Made by a program: the position numbers and the translations under genes. Below, in pieces: positions 3,943 to 53,528 of a DNA stretch of 64,000 bases. Below the pieces are notes generated by a model. It worked only from the letters and a program-made list of their open reading frames with translations. It was not told the origin of the DNA and searched no databases. The first letter of the stretch is position 1. Every line of letters starts with the position of its first letter. The stretch lies in assembly GCF_000189635.1 (NCBI RefSeq), contig NW_002476405.1, positions 434,001 to 498,000 on the forward strand. Reading direction: 5' to 3'. The stretch is from Tetrahymena thermophila SB210 (Eukaryota; Ciliophora; Oligohymenophorea; Hymenostomatida; Tetrahymenidae).

Positions 3943-4250
3943 AAGAGCTTAACAACAAATAAAAAAAGTTGGTTTTTAGTATGATATTGTATTTTCAATA
4001 CTTTTTTCTTTTGTCCATTTTAATATACAAGGTGTTCCATTGCTTGCTTTATTACTCTTGTTGAAAATATTAAAACTTATCAGGAGATTTAAACAAACAA
4101 CAAATTAGTACGAACTATTAATTTAGAAGTTATTAGTGATTCCTGTTATCATTTGTTTTAAATCCTGGGACTAAACTTTATTTGATAATTAATTTCAAAT
4201 CAACAAAAACTAAAATACACAAAAAAAAAATATAAAAAATCTTTAAAAAA

Positions 4251-7591: not shown

Positions 7592-10500
7592 TACAGGATA
7601 TATGATAATACAGGAATTATTAGGGCTATGGCAGATTATATCGTGTTTATTTTTCCCTATTAGTTTATAGGCACAGCTTCTTATACACCTGTTATATTAA
7701 CCAAATTAAATCCTACGTCTACCATACAAATAAGCTAAGATATAAGCTAGTTTTCGCTAGCTTAATCAAAGTATTTTAATCCTTATTACTACATTTAATA
7801 TTGGTTTTGTGTGGATTCAAAAGGTAATGTTTGTGTGGATAAATCAAATTAAACTTTGAAATTAACTCAAAATGGAAGCAATATTGTTGAAATTAGCCAG
7901 TACTCTTTACTTTTGAATACACAATACACAATTTATTATTAGCTAATGAGTTAAAACTTTCCTTTTAGTAAGCAATATGCCGCTTATTAAATTGATACTG
8001 GACAGTCATATCCGTTTGCATTGGTATAAGGAATAATACCATCTGCAACTAAAACTGTTCAGGTTAATTTACAAGATGTCGTATATATTAGCATACAGCT
8101 TCATACAGATTTTCCTTACAGGATAATATTTGCATAATTCTAAATTACATTAAGCTATAATAATGTTTAGCACAGTATAGCATAAGTTTCAAATTAGTTT
8201 TCTATTATCTTAGAAGACTATTTTCCTTCACCAGATTTTACATAGACAGTATCCGTCAGTTTAAAATATTAGATTTATGATTAAATCTTACAATAAAGCA
8301 TTCCTACGCCAAGCGGAAATCAGCCATAAGTTATATATGTCAGAGCACCTCATTCCCCAGTCTAATTACAAATAAGTAATTATAATTTTTTATTTTTTTC
8401 TACTTTAATCCAAGATATTAATTACACAAACCCAAAGATATTATTCAATTTTTAAAGAATATATAATGTAAGTTTTGCTAAATAAACTTTTATAAAAATT
8501 TAAAAAATGAATTTAATTAATTAGATAAATAATATTTATTAAAAGTTTGTAAGTAAATTTTTAAGATACTTATTGAAAATAATGTAATATATAAAATAAA
8601 TAAATAGATCAATAGCCATATGTATCGTTTTAAGATAAAGTGAATGTTATATTTAATCCTACGGACAACAAACAATTATACTAATTTTTCTACTACAACA
8701 ATCAAACAGAATATTAATCAGAAATTTAATTTCCTCTTCAACCTAAAAAGAAAATGCTTTCAACTTTATCTGCTATCTAGTCTATGAGCTGCCTTTTACC
8801 AGCGGGAAATATTATTGTTATTGGAGTTTTATTTGATCCTAGCACTTACTAGTATACGAATGTAACATAAACTGTTATAATAAGTAACAACAATTTCAAT
8901 GAATAAACTTTTGTAGATTTTGTTCAAGCATAAATGGCTGCCGCTTCAGTTTATTAATCTTAAAATCTATTTATAAGTGAAATTTTTATATACTAGACTA
9001 TAATTGGAGCAATTGAGTAATATGAGGCTACTAATATTTCCCCTCAGCTAATTAATTAAATAAAAACATAGATGCTAAATAGACTGATGTAAAGTTAGTG
9101 GAATTAGTAATTCGATGATAGTTACATTCTTTCAAATCAAATTATCTTTAGAATAATATCCTCCTAGATCTAAATAGATAGAAAATCTTAATTATTTTTA
9201 CAACTTATCTAATACTCGAAAACTAGAATTGAATAATTACATAATAAAGTTCAACAAACTTTTTTTTCTTTAACTATATACCAAATTAACTACTTTAGAC
9301 AAAGCTTTTTAGATGTAGCAAACACTTATATGTTGCTAGTTAAATTAAATGAGAATTTACAAATTATCAGCGACTCCGAAATTGTTTAATACACAAACTT
9401 AATAATGAATGGATTTTTATACTTGATTTAAACAAACCAATCTCCTATTGATTTTCCTACTCCTTAGGCTAGTCTCCTTATAGAAAATAATGATTTGCTA
9501 ATGTTTTATAATAATTACTACACTTAAATTGCTCAAACTTTAGACCCATTTTCTTCTTCAAATTATAATATGTATGTAACTATTTCGACATGGTAGAACA
9601 CCACTTATTTATATAGAAATGAACTCTCCCAATTAAATACGCAATACTTATCAAAAGTCAATTCAACTGTTTAAGAATTATTAAAAAGAACTTATCCAAT
9701 TAAAATACCTAGAGTTTACACTAATGATAAGCCCAATGCTACATCTAATAGTCTAAGATTACTGCAATCTCAGAGCGTAAATGTCACCAGTAATTTTACT
9801 TTAGACTTTGGAACAATTTCACCAGAAGAAAAACTTTAATGCATTTAGCGCTCGTCATCAGGACATTGGGTGCACAGTAGCTGCTAAACTCATATTGAAG
9901 TAATAAATAACAAAAAAAACATAAAGTGTGTTTGTCAAACTCCTGATGTAACTTCAGTAATAGCTGATATTACTCAATTAATCGACAATCAAAACGTTTA
10001 ATTGATTTTTAGTGATAATGGCAAAGATAGAATTTCTAAGTTGAACAATTGGTATGAGTACATATCTATATGGACCATGATAGGCTTAAACGTAGCTTAT
10101 TTATTACTACTATGTATCTCGTACAAGCTTGATAAATTAGATAAATCGAAGATCAACTAAATTTTAAATATCATAAACTCAGTTGCAACAACTGATGAAG
10201 AATAAGCGATAAGTCAAAAATTAAGTATCAAAAAAAAAGTATCTCTATTTTTATAGATAAAAATGAAAAAAGCAAGTGAATACATCAATCGTAATGAAGA
10301 GCAGAGTGAAAAAATAAATTCAGAAACTAAATAATAGTAATAAGAAACACAGTAAATTTTAACAGATAGGAATGTTTTTGATAAAATGTACTCACAAGAA
10401 AACGAAGATTCTAATTCTCATCAAAATACATAAAGAGATTAAAATGATTATTAAGGAAGCCAAATTAAACTTAATACAAAGAGAAGCAGCATATTCAATA

Positions 10501-11792
10501 AAAAAAAGAGTGTATTTTCAAACATTTTACTGAATACTAAAAATACACCTGATTTGTAGGAGTTTTAGTAAGAAAATACTGAAGAATAAGAACTAAAAAG
10601 TCAACGAAAGAATAAAAAAGAAACAAATTAAAATCTTATTGAAAATTAAGAAAAATAAAGTTAGGCGATATCGGATAACAAAATAGTAGCATTTTAAGAC
10701 TTGTTTAATGAAAAAAAAGTAACTAAAAATAAAGAAGAAGAAATAGGATCAAATTAGGAATTTGATAAAATCTAAAAAATAATAAATAATGAAATAGCAC
10801 ATAGAAAGGGTACATATCAAACAGATTAACTTAATGAGTTTTCTAACAACTAAAATAACTAAATAAATACAGGATTCATGATTGATGAAATACCATTCGA
10901 ATTTCCTTAATCTCCATTAAACAAAGAAAGACATTTATTTGATATTGAAGTAAATTCTAACTCTTAAAATAAATCAATAAAAATTGAAGACGCTTTGGAT
11001 AAAATCGATGAAAAGAATAATTAGAATTAAAATTAACAAGCAAATTAAAAGCAGAAATAAAATGATTTAAAAAAACAATAAAAAGAAGCTAAAAGATAGT
11101 AAAAAGAATAAGAAAAGATGAGAAAAAAGTAAGAAATCAAAGAAAATAAAGAAAAAATGTAAATGAAAAAATAGATGGAAGAGGAGAAAAAGCAAAACCT
11201 GAAAAAAGAACAAAAACAAAAAGAACTAGAGAAAGAGAATTTATCTAGGCTAAAACTAATCGAATATTTATATAATGAAAAACATTTTATATGCATTTTA
11301 GCTTTCCATCACCTATTTCAAATATTTATAATTTACAGTGAAAAACAATCCAGATTCCTGAGATTTCTAATTTACTATAATAAAGTTGTTTGGATTTTAA
11401 CTTTGAATGCATTATTTGGTAAGAATCTAAGCGTTGTCCAGATATTATTTTTAAGTTTAATAACAACAATAATTCTTTAAATTTTAAGCGCACTTATTTC
11501 AATGCTACTAAAATATTAAAAAATGATGAAATTTGGATTATTTATCTCATTCTTATTCTGTTCATTTTGTTATTACAGTATTCTCGTTGTAATATCTGGT
11601 GAAGATCCTGAAGACTCTAACAAATGGATTATTTCTTACTTTATTACTTTTGCGCTTATTGAGTTATTTTTTGGAATTGGATTATCTACTTTAATGTACT
11701 TTGCTTGTAAAAAAGCAATACTTAAATTATAAACTAATACATTTTTAAAATTGATGGGAGCAAAACCATTATTATTAGCACTAAGTAGTTGA
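7592..11792 (+). CDS. REJ/GPS multi-pass membrane protein, copy A, lacking 5' exons
   Basis: Exons seen: 7592-8375 and 8608-11792 (intron 8376-8607), 1322 codons to a TGA. The first exon has the same 784-base length as exon 4 of the copy at 21131 and starts after an AG in the same phase. It carries the REJ-like core WFCVDSKGNVC and the block EDYFPSPDF. The second exon has a GPS-like box (first Cys at 9840, CVCQTPDVTS at its end), one helix (around IWTMIGLNVAYLLLLCISY), the longest linker of the family (about 385 residues, with a strongly charged KEQ coiled-coil-like stretch near 11.0-11.25 kb) and the four-helix end. What is missing is the signal peptide, the Cys-rich head and the middle exons. 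The first in-frame ATG is at 7628. It is either a 5'-truncated copy or one whose first exons have diverged; the frame itself is intact over 3.9 kb. Confidence 0.75.
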
Positions 11793-15400: not shown

Positions 15401-15910
15401 ATTAACTTAGTAATGAAACATATCTTAAATTTCAGAAATGATTGATCACTGAATATACTTCAAATTTAAGAATTTTGGAGGTAAAAGTAAATTAATTTAT
15501 TAACTTAATGCTTATTTTATTTTTAAAAATTTTTAACACTTAGATTTTCTTCTTTCATTTACCTCTATATTTTTTAATTGGTATCTTAATTCAATTAAAT
15601 AAAAAGAAGTTTTTAATATATGATATAATTTTTGATGGTTATTTATTTCAGATTCTTATATTAGAATTAAAATAAAATAAAAATAGCTATAAAAATTACT
15701 AAAATCAATTTACAAAAAAATAAGATAATTTTAATAAAAAAAATATTTTTCAAAATTAATTATATTTTTTAATTGTTAAATTAGTTATTAATTTTCTTTT
15801 CTACAATTTATCTTTTTAATCAAATATTTTTATAAATATATATTGTGTAAAAATATTTTAGATTTTCATTTCTCTTAAAATATATAGAATGGGGTAGTCA
15901 AACAATAATC
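12070..15910. repeat. left copy of a ~3.85-kb direct duplication
   Basis: Both the minus-strand gene and its flanks recur in the same orientation at about 15915-19835. Shared flank landmarks are 'gaaagtggccataattaa' (12095 and 15935) and the 5' side ending 'ttcatttctcttaaaatata' (15867 and 19783). Copies are similar throughout, with scattered indels. Boundaries are accurate to a few tens of bases. Confidence 0.85.
12463..15336 (-). CDS. large LRR-like protein with kinase-like fragments, copy 1
   Basis: A single uninterrupted frame of 957 residues from ATG at 15336 to TGA at 12463-12465; the only in-frame TGA upstream is at 15460-15462, and no other ATG lies between. There is no signal peptide or membrane helix. 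Around 85-115 there is a kinase hinge-like stretch (FYVFEM at 104-109). Around 319-415 a second kinase-like stretch (EFIILNEKLQC, then YYVLVEK, then KVNPQHLLFKD) looks like a catalytic loop that has lost its Asp. Around 825-900 leucine-spaced strands (EHLQKLTLYY, KQIIQLNLELY) look like leucine-rich repeats. I infer a cytosolic pseudokinase/LRR-type protein of the kind ciliates expand in tandem. The kinase reading is weak and no partner is known. The neighbour at 16355-19251 is its paralogue. Confidence 0.8.
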
Positions 15911-16354
15911 TTTTAAAAAAAATTTTTTTCTTGAAAGTGGCCATAATTAATTAATGAGAAAATACAGTGTTTATTTATTGATTATTTAAGTAAGTGAATC
16001 CAAAATAAGTTAAATAAATAAATTAGATAATTTATAAAGCGAATTCAAAGTAATGAAATAAATAAAAATTATTGAATTTTAATATAAAATGATGATAAAA
16101 GATAATTTAAATTATGTATTAAAAATTGATTATTAATTAAAATTTTTATTTTATAATTTCATATTAATTTTCAAATTTCTAACTTAAGTCCAAAATTAAA
16201 AAAAACAAAATTCTATCAAAAGAGTGTTTGTTTCTATTTTGATACATTTATTTAAATTTATACATAAATATTATTTAATTTTTTTCCAACAAACCATAAA
16301 TCATTTTAAGATTATTTTTTCTTTTTATTAATTTAATCAAAAAGGTATATTTTA
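15337..16354. other. spacer between the two minus-strand paralogues
   Basis: No gene. The right half (about 15915-16354) repeats the 3' flank of copy 1, and the left half is the 5' flank that recurs upstream of copy 2 at 19252-19835. The promoter of copy 1 must lie in the first few hundred bases; no motif is recognised. Confidence 0.55.
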
Positions 16355-21130: not shown

Positions 21131-24100
21131 ATGAGAATTATTTAATATTTAGTAATTTTTATAGCATTCAATTGCTTAGTATTAGCTTCTAATGAGGAGA
21201 GCTAGAATCTACCATCTCATTTGAGAAAACAGACTAGACAGCTTTAAAGTTGTCCATCCAATTGCGATCTTTGTGACTTAGATGGATTTTGCTTGTAGTG
21301 TAGTAACTTAAGAGTATTTCCTAACTGCAGCTGTTAGTTAGGATATTATGAATCCTAAGGAACATGCAAATAATGCAAACCAGGCTGTATGAGTTGTACG
21401 TCTGATAATGATTGTTAAGCGTGTTTTTCTATTTACGTTTACAACGCAGCTACAACAAATTGTGATTGCAATATTCCACATGTGGGAGGTAGAATTAGAG
21501 TTTTCAAAAGAAATAATCATTATTTAATGCATTATTTTATAAAATAGGATGTGAAGACTAATAAACTGGAATTTTAATATACATTACAAGATTGAATACT
21601 GATTTAAGATCTTTTGTGGTTACGTTCAATTAGATGATTACCATGGTGGGAGTGCCTTTAGATTAATAATTTTCGGGTTCATTTCAAAACTGTTAATAAA
21701 TTCTTGATCCAAGTACCGTATAGGTCTACAATAATAATTCTCCAACTGAATAGATACCAAATTGTCTAATTGATCCCTTAAATAGAAACCAGTTCATTAT
21801 TTTTTTTAGTAAAATCAAAGAATTAATTCATAATTTTAATAAGTTCTTAAAATTATTCTATTTAAAAATAGCTACAGCTCCTAGCTCAAGCATTTACTCA
21901 TCAAATTAGCCGAAATTTATATTGGCTAATTTGAATGTAAATATCAATTAGAAAGCTATTCCTGCTACTCAAATCTATTAAAAAGAGCCTAATGTTAGTG
22001 TTTAGCATAATAAAAGAACTAAAATTTGTGCTTTTAGTCTAACTAACTATGTATACCAGTATTCTAGTACTTAAGATGTTGCGTTCGTCAGCCTTACTGA
22101 TATTGGAATTTATAGTGTAGTTAATATTGATAAAATTTAGATAGCAAGCCCTTCTTAGTACTCTAATATTTAGTTCACTTTTTCATTAAATATTAATAAA
22201 TAAGGTTATGAAATTAAATTTAATTCTAATCCATTAATTGATGATACAATTTAACTGTTTGTTTAATGTTCTATACCTTTTGGAATTACTTAAACTGATA
22301 CAGCCACAGTTAAAATTTCTTCAACTTAACCATCTTCTCCTTACAGTATATTTATTCCTTATGTAGGAAATTCCTTTTCCACCTATATCGATGCAGGTTT
22401 TATTATAAATGTTTTGAATTTTCCATCTATATAAGATTATCAAATATAAATAAGCTTTATACCTTAGTTTTAAACCACTCAAACTATCTAATGTAATAGT
22501 TTTACTACATTATATAACGTAATTATCCCTGCTTATACGATTAAATATACAACCAGCGTCTATTTGCTAGTAAATTATTAAATTCATTTATTTATCTTTT
22601 AATTAATATTAAAGAAGTTATTCCAAAACCTTCTTAATTACATCATAATACCATCAAATTTTTTTATAATTAACTATTTTTTATTTTAAAAATTTTATTT
22701 TTATATTTAAGATAAGGGTCTTTGATATAAATGGTATTCTTAGAGGAAAAGGTTATATATAATATATTAATTTAGCATACTAGTTCTTAGGTTAAAACTC
22801 TCTGACTCCAATTAGTTAAAGTAAATTAAATCCTACAGCTAATATTTAAATAGCTTAAGATACTTCGCAATTCATTTTGTCATAAGCAAAATATTTTAAT
22901 CCATAATTTTACATTTAGACTTGGTTTTGCCTAGACAGTAATGGTAATCCTTGTCTAGATCCATAATAGAAACCTCTGAAATTAATTTAGAATGGGAGTA
23001 ATATAGTGAAAATCAGTGCAAACTCTCTGCCCTTAAATACTTAATACACTATTTACTATTAGCTGATGAATCAAGGCTTCCCTTTTAGTAAATAGTATGC
23101 ATCATACTAAATCGACTCCGGTAACTCCTATCCATACGCAATTATTTAAGGAATTATACCTTAAGGACTTTAATTTGTAAGAGTTAATTTATAGGATGTT
23201 GTCTACGTTAGTATATAACTACATACAGACTTTGCTTATAAAATAAGCTATGCGCAATATACTCTAACACTTAGCTATAATAATGTTTAACATACAATCT
23301 AGTAGGTATCTAACTAGTTCTCATTTATACTGTAAGATTATTTTCCTAATCCAGATTTTTCCTAACTTGTTGGTGTACATTTAACTTATTCAATATATGA
23401 CTTCTACTTCCAATAGAACATACCTTAGTTAAATTCAAATCCACCCTCTACCATTTATGTAATTCCACCTCCTTCTCCTATATCATTGACAATCCGTAAA
23501 TTTTAATTTATTTTTCTTCTCTTATTTAAATTATTTAAATAATATTTTGTTGATTAATTATAAATTTATTTATTTTATAAATAAATATTTTCAAATATTA
23601 TTAATTATAATCAATATACTTATTTCATTCATTTTTAAAAGTTCTTACAAAATATTTAAACTAGAAATTTTTTATTTTTTAATTGCTTTTTAAAATTACA
23701 TTTTTTTTCTGCTTTTTCAAATTTTTAATTCTTGAAATATAAGGTATATATACATCTATTTCCCATTATTTAGTAGAAAAAATTTTATAAAGCAGAATCA
23801 TTTAAAATTAATAAATATTTTATTTGATTTATTTTATTTAAAATAATAATTAGCGAACTAAGCATACACAGCTTTTTAAGATTAAGTTTCAATAACTTTT
23901 AATCCCACAGATAAAACAAAATTTTACTAATTTTTCTACTATGAGAGCCAAGCAGATCTACTCTTTGAAATTTAAAATCCCTTATAACCAAAAAGAAAGA
24001 TGCTTTCAACTTAGTCTGCTGTATAATAAATAAATTGCTTATTACCTGCTGGAAATATTGTAGTTATGGGAGTTTATTTTGATCCACAATACTATACTTA

Positions 24101-26726
24101 TGCAAACACTACATAAACTGTACAAATTAATAATAACAACTTTAATTAGCAAACCATATAAACCTTTGTTAACAACCAAATGACATAAGCTCAAAGCTAC
24201 TAAAATTAAAATCTTTACTAGAATGAGATATTTGCATACTAAAACATATTGGGTTCTATTGAGTAGTTTGAAGCAGCTAACACTTCTCCTTCCTAAGTTA
24301 ATCAAGTAAAAATATAAATTTTAAATAGACTCATGTAAAGCGTTTGGACTTAGTAGTTTGATGATAGCTACACTCTTTCTGGTTAAATCATTTAAAAATT
24401 AATAGTTTCATAATTTTAGTTGGATCCATAATCATAATTGTTTTAACAGCTCTAATAATCTACTGTAAGCAGAATTAACTAAATGCATAATGCAGTTCAA
24501 TAGAAATCAGTTGCTTTATCAATAGCATAAATTAACTTCTTTAGAGAGAACTTTCAAGTTGTATCTAACACTTACATGGAGTTAATTAAAGCAAATTCTA
24601 ACTAAGGATTTATTAGCAACTCTGATATCGAAAATTATACTAATTAAATAATGAATGGATTTACTTATTTGCTTCAAACTAACCAGTCTCCTATTGACTT
24701 CCCCACATCTCAAGCTAGTTTTCATATTGAAAATAATGACAATCTAGTCTTTTTTAATAATTACTATAGCTAAGTTGTATAAAATTTAGATCCCTATGCT
24801 TCCACTAATTTTAATTATTATGTTACTGTTTCTAGTTGGTCTAATAGCACCTATTTATATCGTGATGAGCTCATTTAATATAATTAACAATATTTATCTC
24901 AAGCTAACCAAACAGTTTAAACTCTATTAAATAGAACTTACGGAATGAAGATACCAAATGTTTATACTAATAATTAACCCACTCCTTCAAACTCTAGAAT
25001 GAGATTTTTATAATCTTAGAGCACTAGTGTTCCTAGTGGATTTACTTTGAACTTTGGTCCTGTTTCATAAGAAGAAAAGCTTAAGTGCATTTAGCGTCAG
25101 CCTACAGGAAACTGGGTTCACAACAGCTGTCAAACCTCAATTGAGATGAAAAATAATTAGAGGATTATTAAATGTGTTTGCTAAACACCTCAAGTCACAT
25201 CTGTTATCTCTGATATAACTTAGTTATTAGATAATAAAAATCTTTAAAAGATCTTCAGTGAAGATGGTATTGCTGGTTTAGCTTAACTTACTAATTGGTA
25301 TGAGTATGCTCCAATATGGACTATGATAGCTCTGAATATTGGCTTTGCTTTTATGCTTTTTGCTGCTTACGGTTTTGATAAAGTTGATAAATTAGCAATA
25401 AGTTAAACTACTTCTTTAGTTTATCCTATGGACCATTAACACTCAAATAAAAATAGTCAAAAGAAACCTAAAACACTATTTTTAAAAGTAAAGATAAAAA
25501 AAGCAAGTGAGTATAATTTGCAAAATGAGATGTAATTAGAGACACTATAAAAATAAGAAAGCGGACAAGAAAAACTGGAAGTTTAACAACTTTTAGATGA
25601 AAAAGCGGCTTCTAACAATACAGATAGCAAAGAATAAAATAATTAAGGTTAAAATAAATTAAAAGTAAAAGAGGAGTATTCATCTTAAAATTTTTAAACA
25701 TAATTATTAATTAACGACAAAAGAAATTCATCAAATTAAATAGAATAAAATGAACTATAAAAATTAACATAGCATTAGTTTAAGCAAGGAAATAAACAGG
25801 ATTAGCAATCATAAAATAATTAAGTCAAAAAAGTTCAAAATGATGTTTTATTAACTAATATCGAAGTTACAGATACCAATAACTTGTTCGATAAAGAACC
25901 TTCATTAAAGGAATAAGCTAATTAAGACAAATTTTATCAAAATAAATCTCCATAAAACAAGGATAGACATAGCTTAAAATAATAGGTTTCTATTTATTCC
26001 TAAGATGGTCTTAGCAAAGAATAAAATCAATAAAAAAATGAAAACTTAAATGAATAAAAATTATAGAAAAAAAAGAGCTTAGCTGATGAAGATAGTCTCG
26101 AAAAATAAATTAGAAAAGAAGATAAAGAAATTGATAAAATAAAGTAAGAAGAAGAGAAAAAATTCAAAGATAATTTATCTAGGCAGAAATTGATTGAATA
26201 TTTAAATACAGAGAAGCCTATTTATGCTATAATGACATATCATACTCTATTTTAAACATTTATCATATACTAAGAAGACTAGTCTAGGCTATTGAGATTT
26301 ATTATCTATTACAATAAAGTAATATGGCTATTAACTCTTAATTCTATATTTGGAAAAAATATAAGCGTTGTCTAGGTCATTGTTTTAAGTATTGTTACAA
26401 CTATAGTACTTTAAGTTGTTACAACAATTATTCAAATACTTTTAAAATATAAGAAACTTAGAATAATAGGCTTGTTTATTACTTTCTTGTTTTGCTTATT
26501 TTGCTATTATAGTATTCTTGTAGTAATTGCTGGGCAATCTGCTGAAGATGCTAATATCTGGATTATCTCATATTTTGCAGTCTTTATCCTTAATGAATTT
26601 GTCATAGGATTTGGTATATGCGCTGCTATGTATTATGCTTGCAAAAAAATTATTCTTAAAGCTCAAACCAATACATTTTTAGAATTTCTAGGAGCAAGTC
26701 CACTTCTCCAAGCTTTTAGCAGCTGA
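21131..26726 (+). CDS. REJ/GPS multi-pass membrane protein, copy B
   Basis: Five exons: 21131-21488, 21548-21808, 21872-22569, 22712-23495 and 23854-26726, giving 1657 residues to TGA. Residues 1-20 are a signal peptide (MRIIQYLVIFIAFNCLVLAS). About 41-115 is a furin-like Cys-rich head (CDLCDLDGFC, GCMSCTS). A beta-rich middle follows. Exon 4 carries the REJ-like core WFCLDSNGNPC and LPLNTQYTIYY. The GPS-like box spans about 1112-1143 (CIQRQ...W...SC...CVCQTP). Helix 1 is at about 1189-1208, a Gln/Lys/Glu-rich linker lies at 1210-1485, and about four helices at 1490-1640 include FCLFCYYSILVVIAGQ. By family knowledge this is the first half of a polycystin-1-like receptor, presumably at the plasma or ciliary membrane with the Cys-rich part outside. 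No PLAT domain or channel module is seen. Intron phases match the three copies downstream. Confidence 0.85.
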
Positions 26727-32400: not shown

Positions 32401-34993
32401 ATAATCTTATTAGTAATAATCTTAGCTCACAAAAGAAATTTTTGTCTATCAAACTATGATTGAAGCTATTGAATAATATGAGAAAAAAGATAATATTGTG
32501 GATCAAGTAGTTTCTTAGATTAAGCAAAATATTCTACTTAGACTACAGAATAACATATGGCAAAACTAAATTGATTAAATTTTTAATCTCTCAGGTGAAA
32601 TAACCCTAAGAATGATAAGAACTAAAATTTAATTAGACTCTTTACTTTTTAATAAAATTGTCGATCAAACAGTAAACAGAATAAAAAAGCTTAACCAATC
32701 AATTTAACAAATTTAATCATACTTAAATTAAAAATTAAAATTCTAATATTAAGAAAGCTTTAGAATTACTATTTAGACATACATGGAATTAGTTAAAATT
32801 AGTGGAAACTCAGGTCAGATTAGTGAATAAAGCATGATTTAAAATACTGTTAACGCTATGGGTGGCTTATCTATACTTTTGCATACTAATCAGTCACCGA
32901 TTAAACTTTTTACATCAGCTGCATTAATATAAGTTGAAAAATATGATGATATTTTATTTATGAGTAACTATTTTCAGTAGCTAACTACCGTTGATAAAAA
33001 CTCATTTTTGAATTAAAATTAATTCTATATACTAACTCAAAGTTGGCCTAATAATACTTTTTTGTTTAGAGATGAACTTGAGGTTTACAATGAAAAGTAT
33101 ATGATGCTTGCTAATAAAACAACTTTAAACTTGCTTTAGACAACCTATTCTATTAAAATACCTACAGTAATACCAATTTTATTTTCAAAAAATGAAGATT
33201 CAAGAAGAAGGTTTTTGCAGTAGGAGCAAGACTCAAATATTCCTAGCGATTTTGTAATAACATTCTCAAATATAACAGAATAAGAATAACTTAAGTGCAT
33301 CTAGCGTAGTAATTCTGGGTAATGGGTAAGTAAAAGTTGCAAAACAAATTTAGTAATAAATGGTCATTAAAGATAAATAGAGTGTATATGTAAAACTCCT
33401 GATGTTACTTCTATTATAGCAGATGCTGAAGCTTTATTAAATAATGAAAATTTATCAAATATATTTAGCGAGAGTGGAATAGAAGGTCTGCTTAATTTAA
33501 AAAATTGGTATGAATATGTAGCGATATGGACCATTTTCGGTTTAAATATATTTTATGTATGCCTAGCTTGCATAGCAAGAAAATTTGATAAGAGAGATAA
33601 TCTTAAAATATCTGATTTACAACAACATGAAACTTAGAAGGAATAAGAAGTATTAAATAAGGAAACTAAATAAAACGAGAAAGTTTTTATTTTAATCAAA
33701 GCAAGGAAAAGCACTTTCTTAAGGCTTTCTAATACCCTAGAAAATGGAAAAAAAATACTATAAAAATAGTAATTAGAATAAGAAAAAGTAAATAACGTAT
33801 GTGATAATGCTATACTCTAAAGTCAAATTAAAGAATAAGAGTTAACTGAGGTTCAAAGTTGCTAAATTTAAGATAAAAGTAAGTTCTCAATTTAATCACT
33901 AAGATAAATAGAAAACCATCATGAAACGACTATTAACAAGAATTTAAGCTAAAAGCCAACTTGTGATTAATTATGTGGAGAAAAATAGACTAATATATCA
34001 ATTAATATTTAGAATAACTCATATTTGAAGCCTATTTAATGTATATTTGCAGCTAAAGAAGATGAATTTATTAGTAAAAATATCAAAATCCATTAATAAG
34101 GTGAGGATAAAGATAGTCACTCCAAGATTTTATGCTCAAAGCTACAAATAGATAAGAGTCATGAATTGAGTGAAGAAGGAAAAAAGGAAAACATTATAGA
34201 AAGTTAGCACAGTATTTAGCTAAAGTATCATCTTAACGATGGTAAAATATCACCTAAAAATAAGAACTAACATCACATGACTGATGACAGTTTTATTTAA
34301 TCAAAGATAAAAGATGATCAAATTTAATAAAGAAATTCTAATGAAAATGTGGAATAAGACTACAATTAAACTAAAGGTAGTGATTAAGATAAGCAAACTT
34401 AGAAGGAGGAAAAGAAAAAATTAAAAAAAGCTAAAAAAGAACTTGCAAAATAAAAGCTGATAGAATATCTAAATTAAGAAAAAGTAACTTTTGGAATTTT
34501 ATCATTCCATTAGTTTTTTTCAATTTTCTTTATTTACTATGAAAGCTAATCAAGAGTTCTTAGGTCATCAATATTTTATAATAAAATGGTTTGGCTGTTG
34601 GCTTTAAATTCAATTTTTGGTAAAAATTTAAGTATTGTTCAAATATTAATTTTAAGCATTGTCTCATCCATCGTCCTATGGGTAGTTACTCTTATCATTT
34701 CCATCTTTCTAGACAAAAAAAAATTTTAAAAACTTGGAATCTTTATTGTGTTTTCTTTCTGCATCTTTTGCTATTACAGTATATTGGTTGTGATTTCAAG
34801 AAGCTCTGCATATGAATCAAACATATGGGTTATCACTTATTTTTCAACACTCATTCTTAATGAATTTCTATTTGGTATGATCAAAAGTACAGCTTAGTAT
34901 TTCATTTGCAAAAAAGTATTGTAAAAAATTTAAAACAAACATATTTTGAGCATGCTTGGTGCTGGCCTTTTATTAAAAACTTTGAGTGTTTGA
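29418..34993 (+). CDS. REJ/GPS multi-pass membrane protein, copy C
   Basis: Five exons: 29418-29778, 29840-30088, 30150-30841, 31042-31801 and 32067-34993, giving 1662 residues to TGA. It has a signal peptide (MFILPFLLFATFHLSLQ), a Cys-rich head (CDVCDDSGYC, GCMSCTSADSC), a beta-rich middle, a REJ-like core in exon 4 (WFCVDANNNPC, QDYFPNPDF), a GPS-like box starting at Cys1098 and ending CICKTPDVTS, helix 1 (about IWTIFGLNIFYVCLACIA), a linker of about 300 residues rich in Gln, Lys, Glu, Ser and Asn, and four closing helices (FCIFCYYSILVVISR). It is closest to copy D: exon 2 is nearly the same in both (SSTNCQILD versus SSTNCKILD, then TISIYQ, YTCFIDSL and NRFIISF), so this pair is a recent tandem duplication. 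Topology and role are inferred as for copy B. Confidence 0.85.
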
Positions 34994-36140: not shown

Positions 36141-39100
36141 ATGCACTTACTTTTTTTTGTATTATTTACAATAATTCATTAATCTCTATAAGATAGTTCT
36201 ATTGAGAAAGATCAAAGGAACTTTTAGTCGATAGGATAGCAACGAATTTTATAAAGCTGTTCTTAATTTTGTGAGGTATGTGATGACACAGGTTTTTGCT
36301 TAAAATGCTTTGATCAGAGAGTTTTGCCTTCTTGCGATTGCCAAATAGGCTATTTCAATTTCTAAAATACCTGTTAGCCTTGTAAAAAAGGTTGCATGAG
36401 TTGTACTTCTGCATATGATTGTTAAGAATGCTACTCAATCTATGAATTGGACAAATCTAGCCAAATTTGTGCTTGCAAAGTTTCTAACATTATAGGTAAA
36501 TCAAATTGATGTATTATATAATTATAAAAATAAATAAATAATTTTCTTAGATGACTGCGAAAAACCTAAATAAGGTTATCTGTTATAGTATTCAAGGTAT
36601 ATGAGTGATTACAGGTCAATAGAGGTAGTATTTAATCAAATGATCAACATAATTGGTGAAAAATTAATAGACTAATTTGATGCTTAAAGTTCTACTAATT
36701 GTAAAATCTTAGATGCGAAAACAATATCAATTTATTAGGACTCAGTCTATACGTGTTTTATTGATTCTTTATAAAGAAATAGATTTATCATATCGTTTTG
36801 TAAATACTTTTTAAAATTCAATTATATTTATTTTTTTTTCTCTTTTAATTTTAATAAGCTAAATTGAGTGTGAAGTTAGATTAAAAATAATTCTTTAGTA
36901 ACCCAATAATAGATTTAAATAAGATATCTATTTAAATAAAGTAAAATTAAATAGTTGACAAATAAATCTTTAATTTAGAAGAATAAGTAAGATATTAACA
37001 TAATTAGAGTCTAAAAATTTGCTATTTGAGGGATAATAACTTTTATTTTAATTCACAGTAATAAAATTATCTCACCGAATTAGAATATTTTGATTTGAAC
37101 TATGAAAAAATGATATCAAACATAAAATTGAGTATCACAAGTCCCTAGTAATAGACAGGAAAATTGGATATTTAAGGCTAAGATATTTATTACACAGACA
37201 TATCAACCTAGGATTACGAAGGACCAATTACTATTAGGTTAGAGTGCTCCTTATTTAATATTAAAACTGTTGATACAATTACAGTGTATATTTCATTTCT
37301 GTAGAATTTTTCATAGTACGTTTACTCTTCTACACTGGATAAGTAATAAAACTCATTGATAGGAAGTTTAGACAATAAAATTTAATAAAAAACATCTTTC
37401 TTTTAGAATACACACTATTGGATAAGAATATAAACTATTCCTCAAATTATGGAAACCTAAATGATTCCAATAAGCGATAAGGACAGATTACAGATTACTA
37501 CAATACCAGCTTATTCTGCTAAATATACACAAGTCATTTTTGTAATCGTAATAAAGAAAATATTTTTAATTATTCAATTACTTAAGGAAATATTATACAT
37601 AAAAATTATTCTTCTTTCAAATTCTCAAGCTAGTTAGTCTCTCTTTTTTCTTCAAAAATAAATTGATTGAGATTTTTTAACTAAAATTTTGATTCTAAAA
37701 ACAAATCAAACATAATATTTTATCTTTTATAAAATAAACATTTTTTAAATATTATTTAAGTAAGAGGTAATAAATTCATAAGGATTTGCTATTTCTAGGT
37801 CGAATCTTGTGTATCTCAACTATAATATTTAGTACATTCCGAATATTGAGAAACAAATGAATAATGTAAACCCATAAAATGAATTTTGGATAGAAGTGGA
37901 CATAACTTAGTTTTAAATTGCTGAATCTAAAAGTATTGATCCCTAATATACTTCTCAGTCTTGGATTTGTAGTGATGAAAATAATCAGCCATGCATAAAT
38001 ATACACTAATAACCTCTATATATAGATCAATAAGGGAACAAAATGAAACTAAACAAAAATCAATTGCTGTTAAACACTGATTATTTCTTTTTTTACTAGT
38101 TTGAAAGTAAAAAATACTAATTTAGCTATCAATTTTAGAAGTTTTCAGTAAACACGGGTTAAACTTATGCCTATGCAACTATTTAAGGTTAATAGGGAGA
38201 TATTATTAACATTCAAGATTTTATCAACATAATTATTTACATTCACACAGATTTTCCTTATCAAATAGAATAAGCTCTTTACAAACTAACACTAATTTAG
38301 AATGGCTTAGAAAAAACTCTAACTTCAGTTACCAATTAATTCTCGTTTTAAATTTAAGACTATTTTCCTAATCCAGATTTCTCTTAAAATCCAACGACAT
38401 TAAGCATAAGCTACTCAGTTTATGATTATCTCTTCTAATAAACCATATTCATTTAAGATCTATCTAAATAATTCATTCTAAAGATTTCCCCACCTGATTT
38501 GATCAACATAAAGATACGTATACATTTTTTCTTTAAATTAAAGCATATTTCTTTTCATTCACTAGTTAAAATATTCACTGCAATTTATTTTAAAATAAAT
38601 CAATATAATTTTAATTTACCTTCATAAATTCTTAAATTATGAAATATTTTAATTTAAAATTTTAAAAATAAATATTAAAATTGTTACAAATTTCATTTAA
38701 AAGCTAAAAATTTTGATGTCATTAGTGTATTAAATAATAATTAAACTGTTAAAAATAATTAGAAATAAATAGAGATTTCTTTTTTTATAAAAGGCATAAA
38801 TAAATATTTAAAATTAACATGAAAATCTTAAAAGATTTTTATATTTTACTGATTTGGTTTATTTTTTTATTTGAAAAATTCTAATTACAAATTAAAATTT
38901 AATTAATATTTTATACAAAAAAAAATACTAACAACTTTTATTTATTAATTAACAGAAAATTAAATGTACGTTGCATTTAAAGATATGGTTTAAATTGAGT
39001 GCCTAGCTATTAATTCTAAGATAATCTAATTTTTCTACTACAATAGTGCTGAGGATAGAGAATTTGAATTGTAAAACCCTTATCAGACAACTAGAAAGCT

Positions 39101-41837
39101 ACTTAGTTTGGACTAAATCGACTATCATGTTAAAACATATCTTCCAAGCGGAGATATAGTAATTATGGCTTTAGGATTTGATGAACAAAAAAACCAATAC
39201 ACAAATGTTACATATGCGTTAAATGTTAATGATAATCACTTCAGCTAATAATAATATGTTTAGTTCATTGAAGAATAATATAATTTAGCTCTATCATATC
39301 AATAATTAGCTCAATTCAAGGAAGAAATTTTACTTTATTAAAATATAATTGAAACTATTGAATAATTTGAGAAAAGAGATCAAATTTTAAATTAGGTACT
39401 TGCTTAAATTAAATAAAATATTCTAGAAAGGCTTTCGAAAAGTGTTTGGTAATATAAAATAGATTAAATCTTTAATCTTTCTGGTGAAATCACTTTAAGA
39501 ATAATTAGAACTTAAATTTAATTAGACTCTAACCTATTTAATCTGATTTTGAGTTAAACAGAAAATAGAATATAGTAGCTTTACTCTTCAGTTTAGAATT
39601 TACAATCTTAGATAAATACAAAAATAAGATTTTAATATTAAGAAAGTTTTAGAATTACTATTTAGACTTACATGGAATTAGTCAAAATTAGTGGAAACTC
39701 ATACTTAATTAATGAAGAAAGAATTACCTAAAATACCTTCAGTGCCATTTATGGTATGTCTTTGCTATTGCATACTAATTAGTCTCCAGTGAATCTTTTA
39801 ACGTCAACCGCTTTAATATAAGCTGAAAAATTTGACGATGTATTATTCATGAGTAATTATTAATGGCAATCAACTATTAATTAAGATTCATTCTTAAATT
39901 TAAACTAGTTTTATGTCTTAACTTAATGTTGGCCTAATAATACATTTTTGTATAGAGATGAGTTAAAATAATTTAACAAAAAGTATTTAGCCTATGCAGA
40001 TGAATCAACTTTGCCTTTGCTTTTAATCACTTATACTGTTAAAATTCCAAAAGTGATAAAATCTAAACGTCCAATCAATTAAGATAAAAAAGGAAGGTTT
40101 TTGGAGGAAACTAATTCTTTTGACCAACCTAATAATTTTATCATTAGCTTCACAAATGTAACTTAAAATTAATAACTTCAATGCATATAGCGTAATAGTC
40201 AAGGAAAATGGGTGAACAGTAGTTGTAAAACAAGTGTTGTTATGAAAAACAATCAGTGGCAAATATAATGCATATGTTAAACTCCTGATGTTACCTCAAT
40301 AATAGCCGATGCTGAAGCCTTGCTATAAAATGATAATTTGTCTGAAATATTTAGCTAAAGTGGGTTAAGTGGCCTTTCTAAATTAAAAAATTGGTATAAG
40401 TATGTTGTAATATGGACAATAATTCTCTTAAATATTTTTTATATATGTCTTGCTTGTATAGCTAAAAAATTTGATAAAAGAGACCGTGTCAAATTATCTA
40501 ATCTTCAATAATAAACAGAAGATCAATAAAAATTATTTTATCAGGATGCCAAAAAAAAATAAAAAATTTTCATTTTTATTAAAGCAAGGAAAAGTACTTT
40601 GTTACAACTGTAAAATTGCTAGGAAAAAGAGAATAATTTAAAAGAAAAGTAACTCTTATAATAACCAAATATAAACAGTGATTTTAAACAATAAGAAATA
40701 GATGAAGCTAAAAGCTTTTAAATCTAAGATAAAAGGATCATATCTATTTAATCATTAAGGTATATTGAAAATAACCAAATGATATCAAATAATAATATAG
40801 GCTCAAAACGATATAATGATTAATTGTGCACCGAAAAATAGACTCTTGCATCACTAAATAATTAGAATGATTCATATTTTAAATAAAATTAAAACCATTT
40901 CGCAATCAAAGAAGAAGAATAAATTAAAAATAAAATCGAAATCCACCAACCAGGAGAAGAAAAATAAAGCTTATAAGAATCATTAAAATTAAAAGTTCTA
41001 AATGAGCTTAATGATTAGTAAATTGAGTAAAAAAATAAAGAAAATACAGAAATTAACTAAAATTTTTAATTATAATATCATTTAAAAGATGTTTAATAAT
41101 CACCTAAGAATAAGACATAGCATTACTTGGATAATGTAAGCTTTAACTCATCTAAAAAAAAGGAAGATTAGTAATAATAAAATAGATTAAATTAAAAATC
41201 ATAATAAAGTAAAAAGGAAATTAAAATTAATCATAAAAAAATTAGAGAATAAGAAAAAAAAGAACTCAAAAAAATTAAATACGAAATGGCAAAGTAAAAG
41301 CTTGTTGAATACCTAGATTAAGAGAAAACAATTTTTGGAATTCTTTCATTCCATTAATTTTTTTCAATTTTCTTTATTTACTAATAAAATCAATCAAGAG
41401 TTCTAAGGTCCTCAATATTTTATAACAAAATGGTTTGGCTTTTGACCCTTAATTCTATTTTTGGAAGAGACCTAAGTTTTGCTTAAATATTTATTTTAAG
41501 CATCATTTCTTCAATAGTTCTCTGGATAGTTACTAACATCATCTCAATATTTTTAAAGTTTAAAAAGCTTTTTAAAATTGGAATCTTTTTTGTATTTGTT
41601 TTCTGTCTCTTTTGCTATTACTGCATACTAGTTGCAATTTCAAGAAGTACTATTTATTAATCAAATATATGGGTTATCAGCTATTTTGCTATGCTGGTTC
41701 TGAATGAATTTGTATTTGGAATACTCAAATGTACTGCTTAGTATTTTTCTTGCAAAAGAATATTATTAAAAACCTAAAGTAGACTCATATTAAGGATAAT
41801 AGGAGCTAAAATGTTATTAAGTAGCTTTAAAGATTGA
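36141..41837 (+). CDS. REJ/GPS multi-pass membrane protein, copy D
   Basis: Five exons: 36141-36495, 36551-36799, 36859-37547, 37761-38517 and 38956-41837, giving 1643 residues to TGA. I chose ATG 36141 because MHLLFFVLFTIIHQSLQ aligns residue for residue with the start of copy C; an in-frame ATG at 36126 would add MRKQQ. It has the Cys-rich head (CEVCDDTGFC, GCMSCTSAYDC), a REJ-like core in exon 4 (WICSDENNQPC; Ile replaces the usual Phe), a GPS-like box from Cys1093 ending CICQTPDVTS, helix 1, a Gln/Lys-rich linker of about 280 residues and four final helices (FCLFCYYCILVAISR). The acceptor of the last intron is supported by the match QMYVAFKDM to the equivalent point in the other copies. 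Paralogue of copy C. Confidence 0.85.
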
Positions 41838-42941: not shown

Positions 42942-45900
42942 ATGAAAGTAAGTAGTTATATACTTTTATTTCTTTGCATTTCTTCATTTTATTTCAAAGA
43001 GATCAAAGCAGAACATATAGATTAATATGTCTCTTAGAATTTATACAATAGAAATTTATAAAGCTGTTAGAAAAACTGCGCTGTTTGCAATTTCGATGGA
43101 TTTTGTTTGAAATGTAATGATCTTAGAGTATTTCCTAATTGCGACTGCTAAATTGGATACTATGAAAATTCAGGAACGTGCTTACCATGCAAAAGTGGTT
43201 GTATGAGTTGTACATCAGCTAGTACATGCTCTTAATGCTATTCAATTTATACAATTGACTCTTCCACTTAAAATTGTAATTGTAACATGCCAAGCATTGG
43301 AGGTAGAATTAAATTTAATGGTAGTCATTATATTAATCTGTTTTCAATAAATTAGGAACATGTGAACTACCGAACCAAGGAACTTTGCTTTATCAGGCAA
43401 GGTTACTAGATGATTTAAGTTCAATTTAAGTTATTTTTAACTAAATGATTTAAATACTGGGACTCGCATCTTAAAGTAGCTAATTTACTCCATCACCAAA
43501 TAATTGCATAATCTTTGATACCACAACTTTATCAAACTATGGTTGTAACAATATAAATAATTGTTAATGTTTTGTAGATTCTCTAAATCGAAATAAGGTG
43601 GTCATCAACTTTAGTAAAAATTATAAATATATAACACCAAAAAATAAATTAATTTTATTTAATTAAAATTAGTCCTTCTTCAATCTCCTTCATTTACAAA
43701 TCCCTCTTTGTTTTTTATAAATCCTGTCATTGATATTACAAAGATCTAAATTCTAATAAATTAAAATGCTGTCTCAGTGCAAAACATCTACAACTTAGAA
43801 AGTTAAATTGGAGTACAAATAAACTAAAGAATAAAGCTTGGCTATTTTGCCTAAACAAACTACATCTATCAATATTCCGCAGATCCTAATAACCCTTTAG
43901 CATATGTTCTATTTTCCGACTAAAGATTTGCAATATTTTCTGTTTTGACTTGCACAGTTAAAATAAATAGTCCTCCTTAATACACAAGTATTTCACTCTA
44001 AATTGATACTTCATAATAAAACTATTATAGAATTTTGTTTAGCTCTGATCCTCAAATAAATGATACAATTATTGTAGCTTTAACTTGCCAATATTTAAAT
44101 ATTCAAAATACTGACATTGCAACAATTTAAATTTCTACTACTAAATAAAGTACAGTGAATTACATATAGCCTTAGTTATAAGCAAATGGTAATCAAATGC
44201 AAAGTGCCTTAGATTCTATAATAGGAATAATTTTTAATAACTTTTAGTAAAGTAGCTTTTAATTAATTTCTACATTCTACCCTCCAATTATACCTCAACA
44301 AGTAGTTTGGTTGGATCCATCAATCAATTATAGCAACAATTAAAATGCATACTCAGTAAATATACCCGCTTTTTCTGCCAAAATAGTAGAGACCATCTTT
44401 TGCATAGTATTGATTTTATTTTCAGAGATTTATTTGCTATAATTTTGAGCTGATCAATAAATAAAAGTATTTTTAAAATATTATGGGGGATGGATGAGTA
44501 ATGTCCGATAATATGTATAACATTTTAATAAATTAAATATAATCTAATCACTTTTATTGTTTTGAAATTTTACCAGACACCCCTCCTCTTCCATAATTCT
44601 TTCATAAATTAATTTTGCCAGATTTTTAGTTTTTTAAAACAAATTAAAAATTTTTCTTTCACTTATTTTTTGATTTTAGATAAATTTAATTTAATTTAAA
44701 AATGAATTTATTTACTAAAAAAATTTGTTTGATAAAGCTTGCTAAATAATAACTAAAAATTAGAATAATAATTACTTTTCTAATTGTTAATTTTAAATTT
44801 AATTTACGATAAATGATTTTCTTAATCTATTAAATGATATTTTTATTTAAGTTTATGAAAATATTTTTAATTTAATAGCAAAAATTAAATGTTTCTTTTT
44901 TTATAATTAAAATAATAAAGTTTAAGGTTTTAGATAACTAAAACAATCTGTTAGCTGTAGCTTATATACAATATCAAAACATGGCTTATTAAACAATATA
45001 AGACCCAAAGTTAGTTTTGGATAAATAAACACCATTGACAGATTTTTGGATAACAGTAGATACATCCTAATTTAGTCTTTCATAATCTAAAACTATTGAC
45101 CCAAATTATCAGCAATAATCTTGGTTTTGTGTGGATTAAGACAATAAACCTTGTTAGGATATTTATGGAAATAAACTAAAAATAATTGATTATGGTAATT
45201 AAATGAAAGTTCCTAAAAATTCTATATAAATTAATAAGAAATATATATTTTACTACTTATTATAAAGCATCTAATACCCATAGTATAGTAAGTAATATCA
45301 AACATTCACTGTAGGAACTGGAGTAGCATATTCTATGATGGCTTAAACTGTTTTTAAAGTGAATATTTATGACGTTATTTACAATAAAATTCTTGTTCAC
45401 ACTGATTTTTCCTATCAAATCGGAAAAGCACAATATTCTATTTAAATATCAAATAGCTAGAATTAAAAAGTTAATGTAGTTTCTATTTCTAATCAAATAT
45501 GCTTTGTTACAGAAGACTATTTTCCTCTTTTAGATTTTACTAACTCTCCAACACTTATTTTTCTTACTTTTTCTGTATTTGATTACTATTTTAACACACT
45601 TATTCCTATGCAAGACCCTACTTAGCCTATTTAGATTGAAATTTAACCACCTGCTCCATTAAATATCTAAATATGTAATTTAATAATTTTATAATTTCTA
45701 TAAATAATTTATAAAATAATGTATGTTGGGTGCCTAAAAAATATTTTTAGATTTTTATTTAAAGAAAAAACAATAAAATTTTAAATTAAATTAATTTTTA
45801 AAAATAAAAATTTAATGATACCCTTTTCAATAAAACTTAATTAAAATACTAAATTAATACCTTAATAAATTAGAGCAGTAAGCCTATAACGCTTTTACAG

Positions 45901-48749
45901 ATTTAATAACTATTACATGTAATCCAGCAGACAATACTTAATATTATCAGTTCTTTTACTATAACAGCTAAAATGAGAGAGATTTAGAGATTAAATTTCC
46001 TTATTAACCAAGAAGGAAAATGATTTCTATTATGCAATTAAGTCAATAAGTTCAAACGCTTCTACCTCCAGGTAACATAGTAATCATGGCGATGGCATTT
46101 AATCCTTCTAATTATTTATATACAAATGTTACTTAAAATGTATTTGTTAGTAACGTCGATTTCAATTAAGGAGCATACGTTAACTTTATCTAAACATAAT
46201 ACTCAAAAGCTTAATAATTCTAGGGTAACAATTAAAATGTGAATGAGCTGTAAGTTTATTCAATAATAATTGAAGCAATTGAAAGGTACGAGCAAAATAA
46301 TATTTCTCCTCTGTCTGTTGAACAAATAAAGTCTAATATTTTAATAAGATTAACTAATGCGATTTGGTATTAACAGCTTGATGATGTTTTCAATTTATCT
46401 GGATAAATAACTTACAGGATGATTTCTACTTAGTGGTAATATTCAGCTCAGTCATTCAAACAAATTTAAATAGCTACAGAAACAAGAATATAAACTCTCT
46501 ACAATTGGATTCAGCAACAATACTCTTCTCTTTCATATTCTTAGTAATTAGCTTATAAATTATGCTTTATATCCAGTATGCAGACATATATGTAGCTAAT
46601 TAACCTTAATGCTTATTCAGATGTGATATTAGACACTAATATTGTTTAATACACAATTGAGATAATGAGTGGATTATCTTATTTATTAAAAGTAAATTAG
46701 TCTCCTATTAATTTATAATCAGACTAAGCTAGTCTTTTAATAGAAAGATATGATATCATTCTGTTTATGGATAAGTACTACTAGCAATTTATTTCTGATC
46801 CAACTCCTATTTAGGTTGCTTAGAGTTTCTATGTTTTAACGCAGACTTGGGGCAATAACACATTTTTATACAGACAAGAAATTAATTAGCTAAATTAACA
46901 ATATTAAAGTAAGGCTAATTCTACAACTTAGGCTTTACTTAATATAACATATCCAATAAAAATACCAACTGTTTTTACAGATTAGGCACAAACAAATTTT
47001 TAGTCTAGAAGAGATAGAGTACTATAAACAAATGCTGCATCTCTACCAAATAATTTTATACTAGATTTTGGAACAGTAAATGAGCAATAAGTTAAATGTA
47101 TTTAGCGTTCATAATCAGGTTAATGGGTAAGTAATAGTTGTTAAGTTTAATTCAATGTGGTTAATAATAAGAGAAATGTAAAGTGTGTTTGTTCTACTCC
47201 TACAGCAACATCGATTTTAGCTGATGCTGAAGCTCTTTTAAACAACTAAAATCTTTAAAATATATTCAGTGAAGGTGGTATTTAAAACATTTCAAAATTA
47301 AATGATTGGTATGATTATGTAGCAATTTGGACAATGCTAGGTTTGAACATAATCTTAATTTTTATGCTCCATTTTGTGAATACTATAGATAAAAAAGATT
47401 TTCAAACAATTTAACAATTTTAGGTAGTCAATACTGAGACATACATAGACACAGAAAAGTAAAATTAAAATAGAGATTAAAGGAGAGGAGTTTTCATTAT
47501 GATTAAAGCCAAAAATATATCAGAATACAGCAACCTATTTGAAGATATTACAAGCTTACAAAAGTTAGAAAATAAACTAGAAACCTAATAGCTATTAAAA
47601 GAAAAGTCTGAATCGCAGCTTATTCTTTAGAACTAGTAAACAAATCTTAAAATAGAGCTTATTTAAAAATAGACAAGCTTAGAGCAAGATAAGTAAAATA
47701 ATGATTTATTTTAGAAGAAATAAGCAGACTCAAAAGAAGGATTAAATGAAACATAAAAAGACAAGGAATAAAAGTTAAATGGAGAGCATGAAATTTAAAC
47801 AGATAGAGAAATAAACTTGTAAAACTAAAAAAATAACAATAAACAGCAAAGTTATAGTTAAGAATAAAACTAACCAAATAGCTTTAAGGTCTTATCAACT
47901 GTTGCTATTTTACCCAAAGAAAATTAAAATACAACATAAAAAATATAACCTGATGAGGAAAATATGAAAAACTTAACTGATCAATAAAATGAAGAAGAGA
48001 GATTTAGTGTAAATAATGATGAATAGACAGAAAAGAGTAAAATAAACAAGAAACCTTCTAAGAAAAATTCTAGTAAAGTATTCCCAGTAACCTCAAAGAA
48101 TGAAGTTTAAGAGAAATAGCAAGAAGGTGATATTGAAGATAAAAAAGAAGATTTGAAAGCTTTAAAAGAGTAAGAATAAAAGAAAAAAGAAATAGTAGCA
48201 AAAGAAAAATTTAAAGAATATTTATAGCTAGAGAAATTTAAGTTTGGTGTATTTGCTTTCCATTAGCTATTTTCTATTTTTACAGTTTACAATGAAGACC
48301 AATCTAGAATATTTAGGTTCGTGATTTTCTACAATAAACTAGTTTGGCTATTAACTCTAAATTCGATATTTGGCAAGAATTTAAGTGTAGTTCAAGTTAT
48401 TATCTTAAGTATTGTTACAACTATTGTCCTGCAAATAGTAACCAATATTGTTGAAATACTTCTGAGATATAAAAAACTTAGAAAACTTGGATTATTAGTA
48501 GTGTCTTTATTCTGTCTTTTCTGCTATTATAGTATTCTTGTAGTTATTGCAGGAGAATCTGCATACGAATCTAATCTCTGGATTATCTCATACTTTGCCA
48601 CTTTAATTGTTAATGAATTAATATTGGGAATCCTCATTAGCGCTGTAATGTTTTACTTGTGTAGAAGATTTATAAAATAAATCAAAAATAACATGATTTT
48701 AGAACTTCTTGGAGCAGGAGTATTATTATAAGCTTTTAGCAAAAATTGA
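42942..48749 (+). CDS. REJ/GPS multi-pass membrane protein, copy E
   Basis: Five exons: 42942-43302, 43356-43613, 43673-44406, 44921-45674 and 45874-48749, giving 1660 residues to TGA. It has a signal peptide (MKVSSYILLFLCISSFYF), a Cys-rich head (CAVCNFDGFC, GCMSCTSASTC), a beta-rich middle with a longer exon 3 than its relatives, a REJ-like core (WFCVDQDNKPC, EDYFPLLDF), a GPS-like box from Cys1111 ending CVCSTPTATS, helix 1 (about IWTMLGLNIILIFMLHF), a linker of about 280 residues very rich in Gln, Glu and Lys, and four closing helices (LFCYYSILVVIAGE). The intron before the last exon needs the acceptor at 45872-45873 to keep phase 1 and restore QQQAYNAFTDLIT. Last member of the tandem array; family function as for copy B. 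Confidence 0.85.
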
Positions 48750-53420: not shown

Positions 53421-53468
53421 TTTTTTTATCTTCAAGAAATGAGCCAAAGATAGAACGCATAAATAAAC

Positions 53469-53488: not shown

Positions 53489-53528
53489 TAAAATAAATAC
53501 TATTAAATTCAAAATACTAAGTGAAGAA

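What the first reader, a model, noticed from the sequence alone, without database searches (positions are those of the whole stretch)
7592..48749. Tandem array of five polycystin-1-like 'half receptors' in a ciliate
Each copy carries Cys-rich head, REJ-like core, GPS-like box, one helix, long cytosolic linker and about four more helices, then stops. This is the polycystin-1/PKDREJ order up to the helices after PLAT, but no PLAT domain is recognisable in the linker and the six-helix channel module is absent. If confirmed, these are receptor halves that would need a separate channel partner or signal differently. Five same-strand copies in 41 kb is a strong local expansion.
Basis: partly seen in the sequence, partly recalled or inferred. 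Interest (0 to 1): 0.75.

Follow-up and report, generated by a model that had tools for sequence, protein, structure and literature searches.

The report
Channel-less polycystin-1 half receptors in Tetrahymena
Five neighbouring genes of the ciliate Tetrahymena thermophila encode surface proteins built like the front half of the kidney-disease protein polycystin-1 but ending before its ion channel, and they belong to a family of roughly a hundred such genes, which suggests that polycystin-1's receptor and channel may once have been separate proteins.

The parts
7592..11792 (+). copy 1: 5'-truncated gene; exon opening at acceptor 7592 (first ATG used by the model 7628) to 8375, and 8608-11792; no Cys-rich head
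   Evidence: gene model; tblastn of P0006/P0002 N-termini finds no upstream head exon; NCBI protein P0005, 1201 aa, 'LMBR1-like motif protein'
21131..26726 (+). copy 2: exons 21131-21488, 21548-21808, 21872-22569, 22712-23495, 23854-26726; 1657 aa, identical to NCBI protein P0002
29418..34993 (+). copy 3: exons 29418-29778, 29840-30088, 30150-30941, 30998-31801, 32067-34993 (model)
36141..41837 (+). copy 4: exons 36141-36495, 36551-~36800 (3' end uncertain), ~36890-37547 (5' end uncertain), 37761-38517, 38956-41837
42942..48749 (+). copy 5: exons 42942-43302, 43356-~43615 (3' end uncertain), 43673-44406, 44927-45674, 45874-48749
21131..21488 (+). hydrophobic start (signal-peptide-like) and Cys-rich (furin/GFR-like) head of copy 2; same exon in copies 3, 4, 5 (29418-29778, 36141-36495, 42942-43302)
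   Evidence: R-spondin furin-like repeats are the top PDB hits of the family profile
23856..25205 (+). copy 2 beta domain + GAIN-like domain ending in the GPS-like box
9840..9959 (+). GPS-like box copy 1 (C-W-C-CxC kept, no H-L-S/T)
25086..25205 (+). GPS-like box copy 2
33296..33415 (+). GPS-like box copy 3
40182..40301 (+). GPS-like box copy 4
47097..47216 (+). GPS-like box copy 5
25296..25382 (+). TM1 copy 2 (copies 1, 3, 4, 5: 10050-10136, 33506-33592, 40392-40478, 47307-47393)
25383..26162 (+). linker of copy 2 in the place of PLAT: pLDDT <50 over nearly all of residues 520-745 of the last exon
26238..26723 (+). TM2-TM5 module copy 2 (copies 1, 3, 4, 5: 11304-11789, 34505-34990, 41349-41834, 48258-48746), followed at once by the TGA stop
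47298..48746 (+). copy 5 TM1-linker-TM5, folded alone: the first 11 VIA-align rows are all polycystin-1

Best explanation
Shown by sequence and models: the five genes encode surface-type proteins made of a Cys-rich furin/GFR-like head (absent in copy 1), beta domains homologous to the REJ region of sister genes, a GAIN-like domain whose GPS box keeps its cysteines but not the cleavage triplet, and then the N-terminal membrane module of polycystin-1 (TM1 to TM5), with PLAT replaced by a disordered linker and the six-helix channel half absent. The TM2-5 module occurs about 105 times in T. thermophila. Inferred: they are uncleaved receptors. Ligand or force on the ectodomain would be passed through the intact GAIN domain to the five-helix module and the linker. 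The five-helix module would regulate a partner in trans, most plausibly one of the PKD2-like channels encoded elsewhere in the genome, as the same module may do in cis in polycystin-1. My confidence is about 0.9 in the anatomy and homology, about 0.6 in uncleaved receptor action, and about 0.35 in a PKD2 partner.
Confidence: 0.62

Rival explanations
1. Same anatomy, but no channel partner: the family is a diversified set of adhesion or recognition proteins (food, prey, or self/non-self), the five helices serving as anchor and signalling platform to cytosolic partners through the linker.
For: About 105 modules, 80 of 105 with a same-strand neighbour within 20 kb, a pattern usual for surface-recognition genes (inference). 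The mating-type proteins MTA, MTB and MRC1 are also described as having five TM helices and a Cys-rich GFR domain (PMC10901506, passages; PMC3608545, passages). Far more modules than channel matches (105 to 6).
Against: The five-helix module is kept together with GAIN (TM2-5 48-69% and GAIN+TM1 39-62% identity against 23-47% in the linker, in 4 of the 10 pairs of copies), and it is the module that in polycystin-1 is joined to a channel. MTA and MTB sequences were not in hand, and no head-to-head pair of modules is found in the genome.
Confidence: 0.3
2. The fold match to polycystin-1 is a chance likeness of five-helix membrane bundles; the proteins are GAIN receptors with an unrelated membrane part.
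For: TM2-5 profile without any PDB sequence hit; weak Foldseek E-values; helical bundles often give middling Z (notes).
Confidence: 0.05
3. The genes are decayed or mis-assembled full polycystin-1 genes that lost their channel exons.
For: Copy 1 is truncated at its 5' end.
Against: A single stop right after the last helix in five of five copies. Of seven REJ gene models, L014 and L017 run cleanly to a stop behind TM5, L013 does so with doubtful last exons, L012 and L018 break off inside the module, L015 and L016 were fetched too short to tell. Orthologues in T. malaccensis and T. utriculariae. Third-position bias in GAIN and TM2-5. No PKD_channel match on any of the 46 contigs with modules.
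Confidence: 0.03

Closest known systems
Polycystin-1 / PKDREJ / PKD1L family
   Same: REJ-related ectodomain, GAIN with GPS box, TM1, cytosolic insert, TM2-TM5 of the same fold
   Different: No PLAT, no TM6-11 channel half, no cleavage triplet; Cys-rich furin-like head instead of LRR/PKD/lectin modules (those of polycystin-1 recalled)
T. thermophila 'REJ domain protein' genes (NCBI annotation)
   Same: Same order from Cys-rich head to TM5 where the models are complete; homologous over GAIN and TM2-5
   Different: They score on Pfam REJ (74 matches); the window branch does not
Adhesion GPCRs (BAI2/3, latrophilin, GPR110, CD97)
   Same: GAIN fold and GPS cysteine core
T. thermophila mating-type proteins MTA, MTB and MRC1
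   Same: Described as five TM helices plus a Cys-rich GFR domain on a large membrane protein (passages)
   Different: In MTA/MTB the Cys-rich segment lies in the terminal exon, about 50 residues in, not at the N-terminus; sequences not in hand, so kinship untested
Polycystin-2 / PKD2-like channels
   Same: Possible partner; six PKD_channel matches in the genome
   Different: Carry the channel half that these proteins lack

Membership tests
Polycystin-1 family | REJ region N-terminal to GAIN | tested here: inconclusive
   Pfam REJ not reached in window copies, but the homologous region is REJ-positive in sister genes
Polycystin-1 family | GAIN domain with GPS | tested here: met
   Foldseek and VIA GAIN matches; C-[W/M]-C-CxC in 50 of 50 rows; Pfam GPS itself not reached
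Polycystin-1 family | TM1 to TM5 module of polycystin-1 fold | tested here: met
   [not shown]
Polycystin-1 family | PLAT domain between TM1 and TM2 | tested here: not met
   No Pfam PLAT in scanned window ORFs of copies 1-3 or P0002; linker pLDDT <50 in copies 2 and 5
Polycystin-1 family | TM6-11 polycystin/channel half | tested here: not met
   Stop right after the last helix in five of five copies; no PKD_channel match on the contig
Polycystin-1 family | GPS cleavage triplet H-L-S/T | tested here: not met
   0 of 50 rows, the five copies included; cleavage itself not testable here
Adhesion GPCR | seven-helix 7TM_2 domain after GAIN | tested here: not met
   One helix, long linker, then four membrane helices in the models; no Pfam 7TM match
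Tetrahymena REJ/GAIN/TM1-5 family (defined here) | Cys-rich head, REJ/GAIN region, GPS-like box, TM1, linker, TM2-5, stop | tested here: met
   Copies 2-5 in full, copy 1 without head
MTA/MTB mating-type proteins | shared TM exon with GFR repeat, head-to-head gene pair | tested here: inconclusive
   No head-to-head pair among the modules; MTA/MTB sequences not available for comparison

The most novel reading that the evidence does not exclude
Polycystin-1 is a fusion: an ancient GAIN plus five-helix receptor joined to a PKD2-type channel. T. thermophila keeps the two halves apart, as about 105 receptor halves whose GAIN domains lack the cleavage triplet and a handful of PKD2-like channels that could be combined in many ways, giving a cell a large set of ligand-specific inputs to few channels.
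Probability: 0.25. Interest if true: 0.87.

Novelty: new variant of a known kind. Interest (0 to 1): 0.74.

Why it matters
What the N-terminal five helices of polycystin-1 do apart from the channel is hard to test in animals, because both halves are in one chain. Here the half stands alone, in about a hundred versions, in a genetically tractable cell. It bears on how polycystin-1 arose (fusion or split). It also bears on the view that ciliates lack PKD1: a 2019 Paramecium paper describes Paramecium as a background without homologous sequences for Pkd1 (PMC6627415, passages); Paramecium itself was not tested here. And it offers natural GAIN domains without the cleavage triplet, useful for asking which functions need no cleavage.

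Tried and rejected
Direct Pfam proof: none for REJ, GPS, PLAT or channel in nine window ORFs (eight of copies 1-3, one of a neighbouring gene; copies 4 and 5 were not scanned) at E<=1, nor in P0002, P0007, P0009, P0057 up to E 10; positive controls rang (REJ in P0012 and P0028, GPS in L049 and L050), while the family member P0051 gave nothing. Sequence profile of TM2-5 against PDB: no hit. Profile of the whole family against PDB finds mainly furin-like repeats. Relatives outside Tetrahymena: the profile search listed P0059 of Pseudocohnilembus, but it covers 6% of the query and its sequence is mainly Cys-rich repeats; I do not count it as a relative of the GAIN/TM part. Mating-type kinship: no head-to-head pair of modules; left open. 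Whether the canonical-GPS proteins at L050 and L049 share TM2-5: hhalign E 0.08 and 0.1, probability under 1%, inconclusive. Genome-wide PLAT search: 0 matches but no control rang, so not used as proof. Rows left out: the 50-row alignment holds the five copies and 45 of the 55 proteins found; left out were P0002 and P0005 (the copies' own proteins) and P0015, P0021, P0042, P0043, P0047, P0050, P0055, P0056. Papers: no paper in the held library has 'Tetrahymena' with 'REJ domain' or with 'receptor for egg jelly', nor 'Paramecium' with 'polycystin-1-like'. Searches (1 of 1 listed; 20 of 24 listed; 15 of 64 listed; 1 of 1 listed) showed nothing that by title and start of abstract describes this family; PMC12716839 and PMC9960496 were searched by terms only.

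Full report
What was looked at. The window is contig C140:434001-498000 of a 101-Mb, 445-contig genome. A full-length spliced model of copy 2 finds an NCBI protein of Tetrahymena thermophila SB210 at 100% over the searched part, and the refined model equals that protein residue for residue, so the organism is settled.

The five genes. A small Viterbi gene finder trained on the long 3' exons gave models for five + strand genes, refined for copy 2. All five end in a long exon opened by an intron of the same phase, with one stop right after the last helix. Copies 2-5 begin with a hydrophobic start and a Cys-rich exon. Copy 1 does not: its first exon opens at an acceptor at 7592 and nothing like the head lies upstream in the window (best E 1.4), although the T. 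malaccensis orthologue P0006 has one. A tree of 17 rows puts copies 1 and 2 together, each with its own orthologue from another species, so that duplication is older than the species; copies 3 and 4 are sisters and copy 5 stands apart, with an open fork. In four of the ten pairs of copies, GAIN and TM2-5 differ most at third codon positions and are more conserved than the linker: these parts look constrained, not decayed.

REJ and GPS. Pfam is silent on nine window ORFs from copies 1-3 and one neighbour and on P0002. The same genome has 74 REJ matches, none on C140. Gene models at seven of these loci show Cys-rich repeats and, where long enough, the GPS-like box, TM1, linker and C-terminal helices: clean to the stop in L014 and L017, with doubtful last exons in L013, broken off inside the module in L012 and L018; L015 and L016 were cut by the fetched stretch. 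Window copies and REJ genes are homologous by plain blastp, for example copy 4 to L014 at E 8e-20, and copy 2 residues 530-804 to L012 802-1068 at E 1.4e-7, inside L012's REJ match (about 735-1109, my arithmetic). A profile of the GAIN/GPS part finds only three PDB sequences at E<=10, all adhesion-GPCR GPS regions, with the cysteines in register; the E-values are weak (0.13, 0.23, 6.1). The cysteine core is present in 50 of 50 aligned rows (W in 49, M in P0011), and the cleavage triplet H-L-S/T in 0 of 50. For contrast, two other genes of this genome (L049, L050) score on Pfam GPS and read HLS and HLT at that place.

How many. The last exon of copy 2 finds 53 matches in the genome, 48 of 211 first-look candidates being scored. 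A TM2-5 stretch of a REJ gene finds 108, all five window copies among them, which merge to 105 modules on 46 contigs; the tool says that counts of large families are lower bounds. Of 74 REJ matches, 69 are followed by a module on the same strand within 1573-2356 bases (median 1696); of the five others, three lie on the minus strand within 2 kb of the low end of their contig. 36 modules have no REJ match upstream, the five window copies included. 80 of 105 have a same-strand neighbour within 20 kb. The six PKD_channel matches lie on five contigs, none of which carries a module. So by these searches T. thermophila has receptor halves and channel halves but no gene with both; only the window copies and a few REJ genes were followed to their stop.

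How it may work. In human polycystin complexes the N-terminal part of PC1 is needed for channel activation (PMC7728438, passages). The half receptors keep an ectodomain, GAIN and five-helix module and lack the channel. I think it most likely that they are uncleaved surface receptors acting on a partner in trans, and that a PKD2-like channel is the single most plausible partner (about 0.35); this is inference. The main rival is channel-free recognition. The mating-type proteins of the same species are described as having five TM helices and a Cys-rich GFR domain (PMC10901506 and PMC3608545, passages), which makes self/non-self recognition worth testing, but I had no MTA or MTB sequence, and no head-to-head pair of modules was found.

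What is known. NCBI names these genes 'REJ domain protein', 'transmembrane protein, putative' or 'LMBR1-like motif protein'. The precomputed Pfam column of the 45 proteins found with a REJ gene (39 with REJ) lists no PLAT, GPS or PKD channel. I found no paper that describes the family in the searches made (listings partly capped); subscription journals are mostly not held. From memory, GAIN-domain surveys have mentioned Tetrahymena; I could not check that. I therefore file it as a new variant of a known kind: polycystin-1-like receptors reduced to the receptor half, in about a hundred copies.

Noticed in passing
window 12466-19374, - strand: Two mutually similar genes (a 998-aa ORF, and a pair of ORFs of 405 and 674 aa) sit between copies 1 and 2 on the opposite strand; the 998-aa ORF has no Pfam match at E<=1.
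   Followed up: no
window 53007-55427 and 59650-61257, + strand: Two repeat-rich Cys proteins that look like Tetrahymena immobilization (surface) antigens; label recalled, not tested.
   Followed up: no
window 4140-4595, + strand: Small Cys-containing ORF with a hydrophobic stretch at each end, like a short GPI-type surface antigen; impression only.
   Followed up: no
L049 (C97:516501-520500) and L050 (C122:462901-466900, - strand): Two other genes with Pfam GPS, intact HLS/HLT triplets and several hydrophobic stretches behind; they may be a second set of channel-less GAIN proteins, but comparison of their helices with TM2-5 was inconclusive.
   Followed up: partly
window 7592-11792: Copy 1 lacks head exons in T. 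thermophila while the T. malaccensis orthologue P0006 has them; the NCBI name 'LMBR1-like motif protein' for it looks spurious.
   Followed up: yes
L018 (C184:725001-734900): The model runs two REJ genes together; the two copies share long identical stretches, which suggests a recent tandem duplication.
   Followed up: no
[not shown]
   Followed up: no
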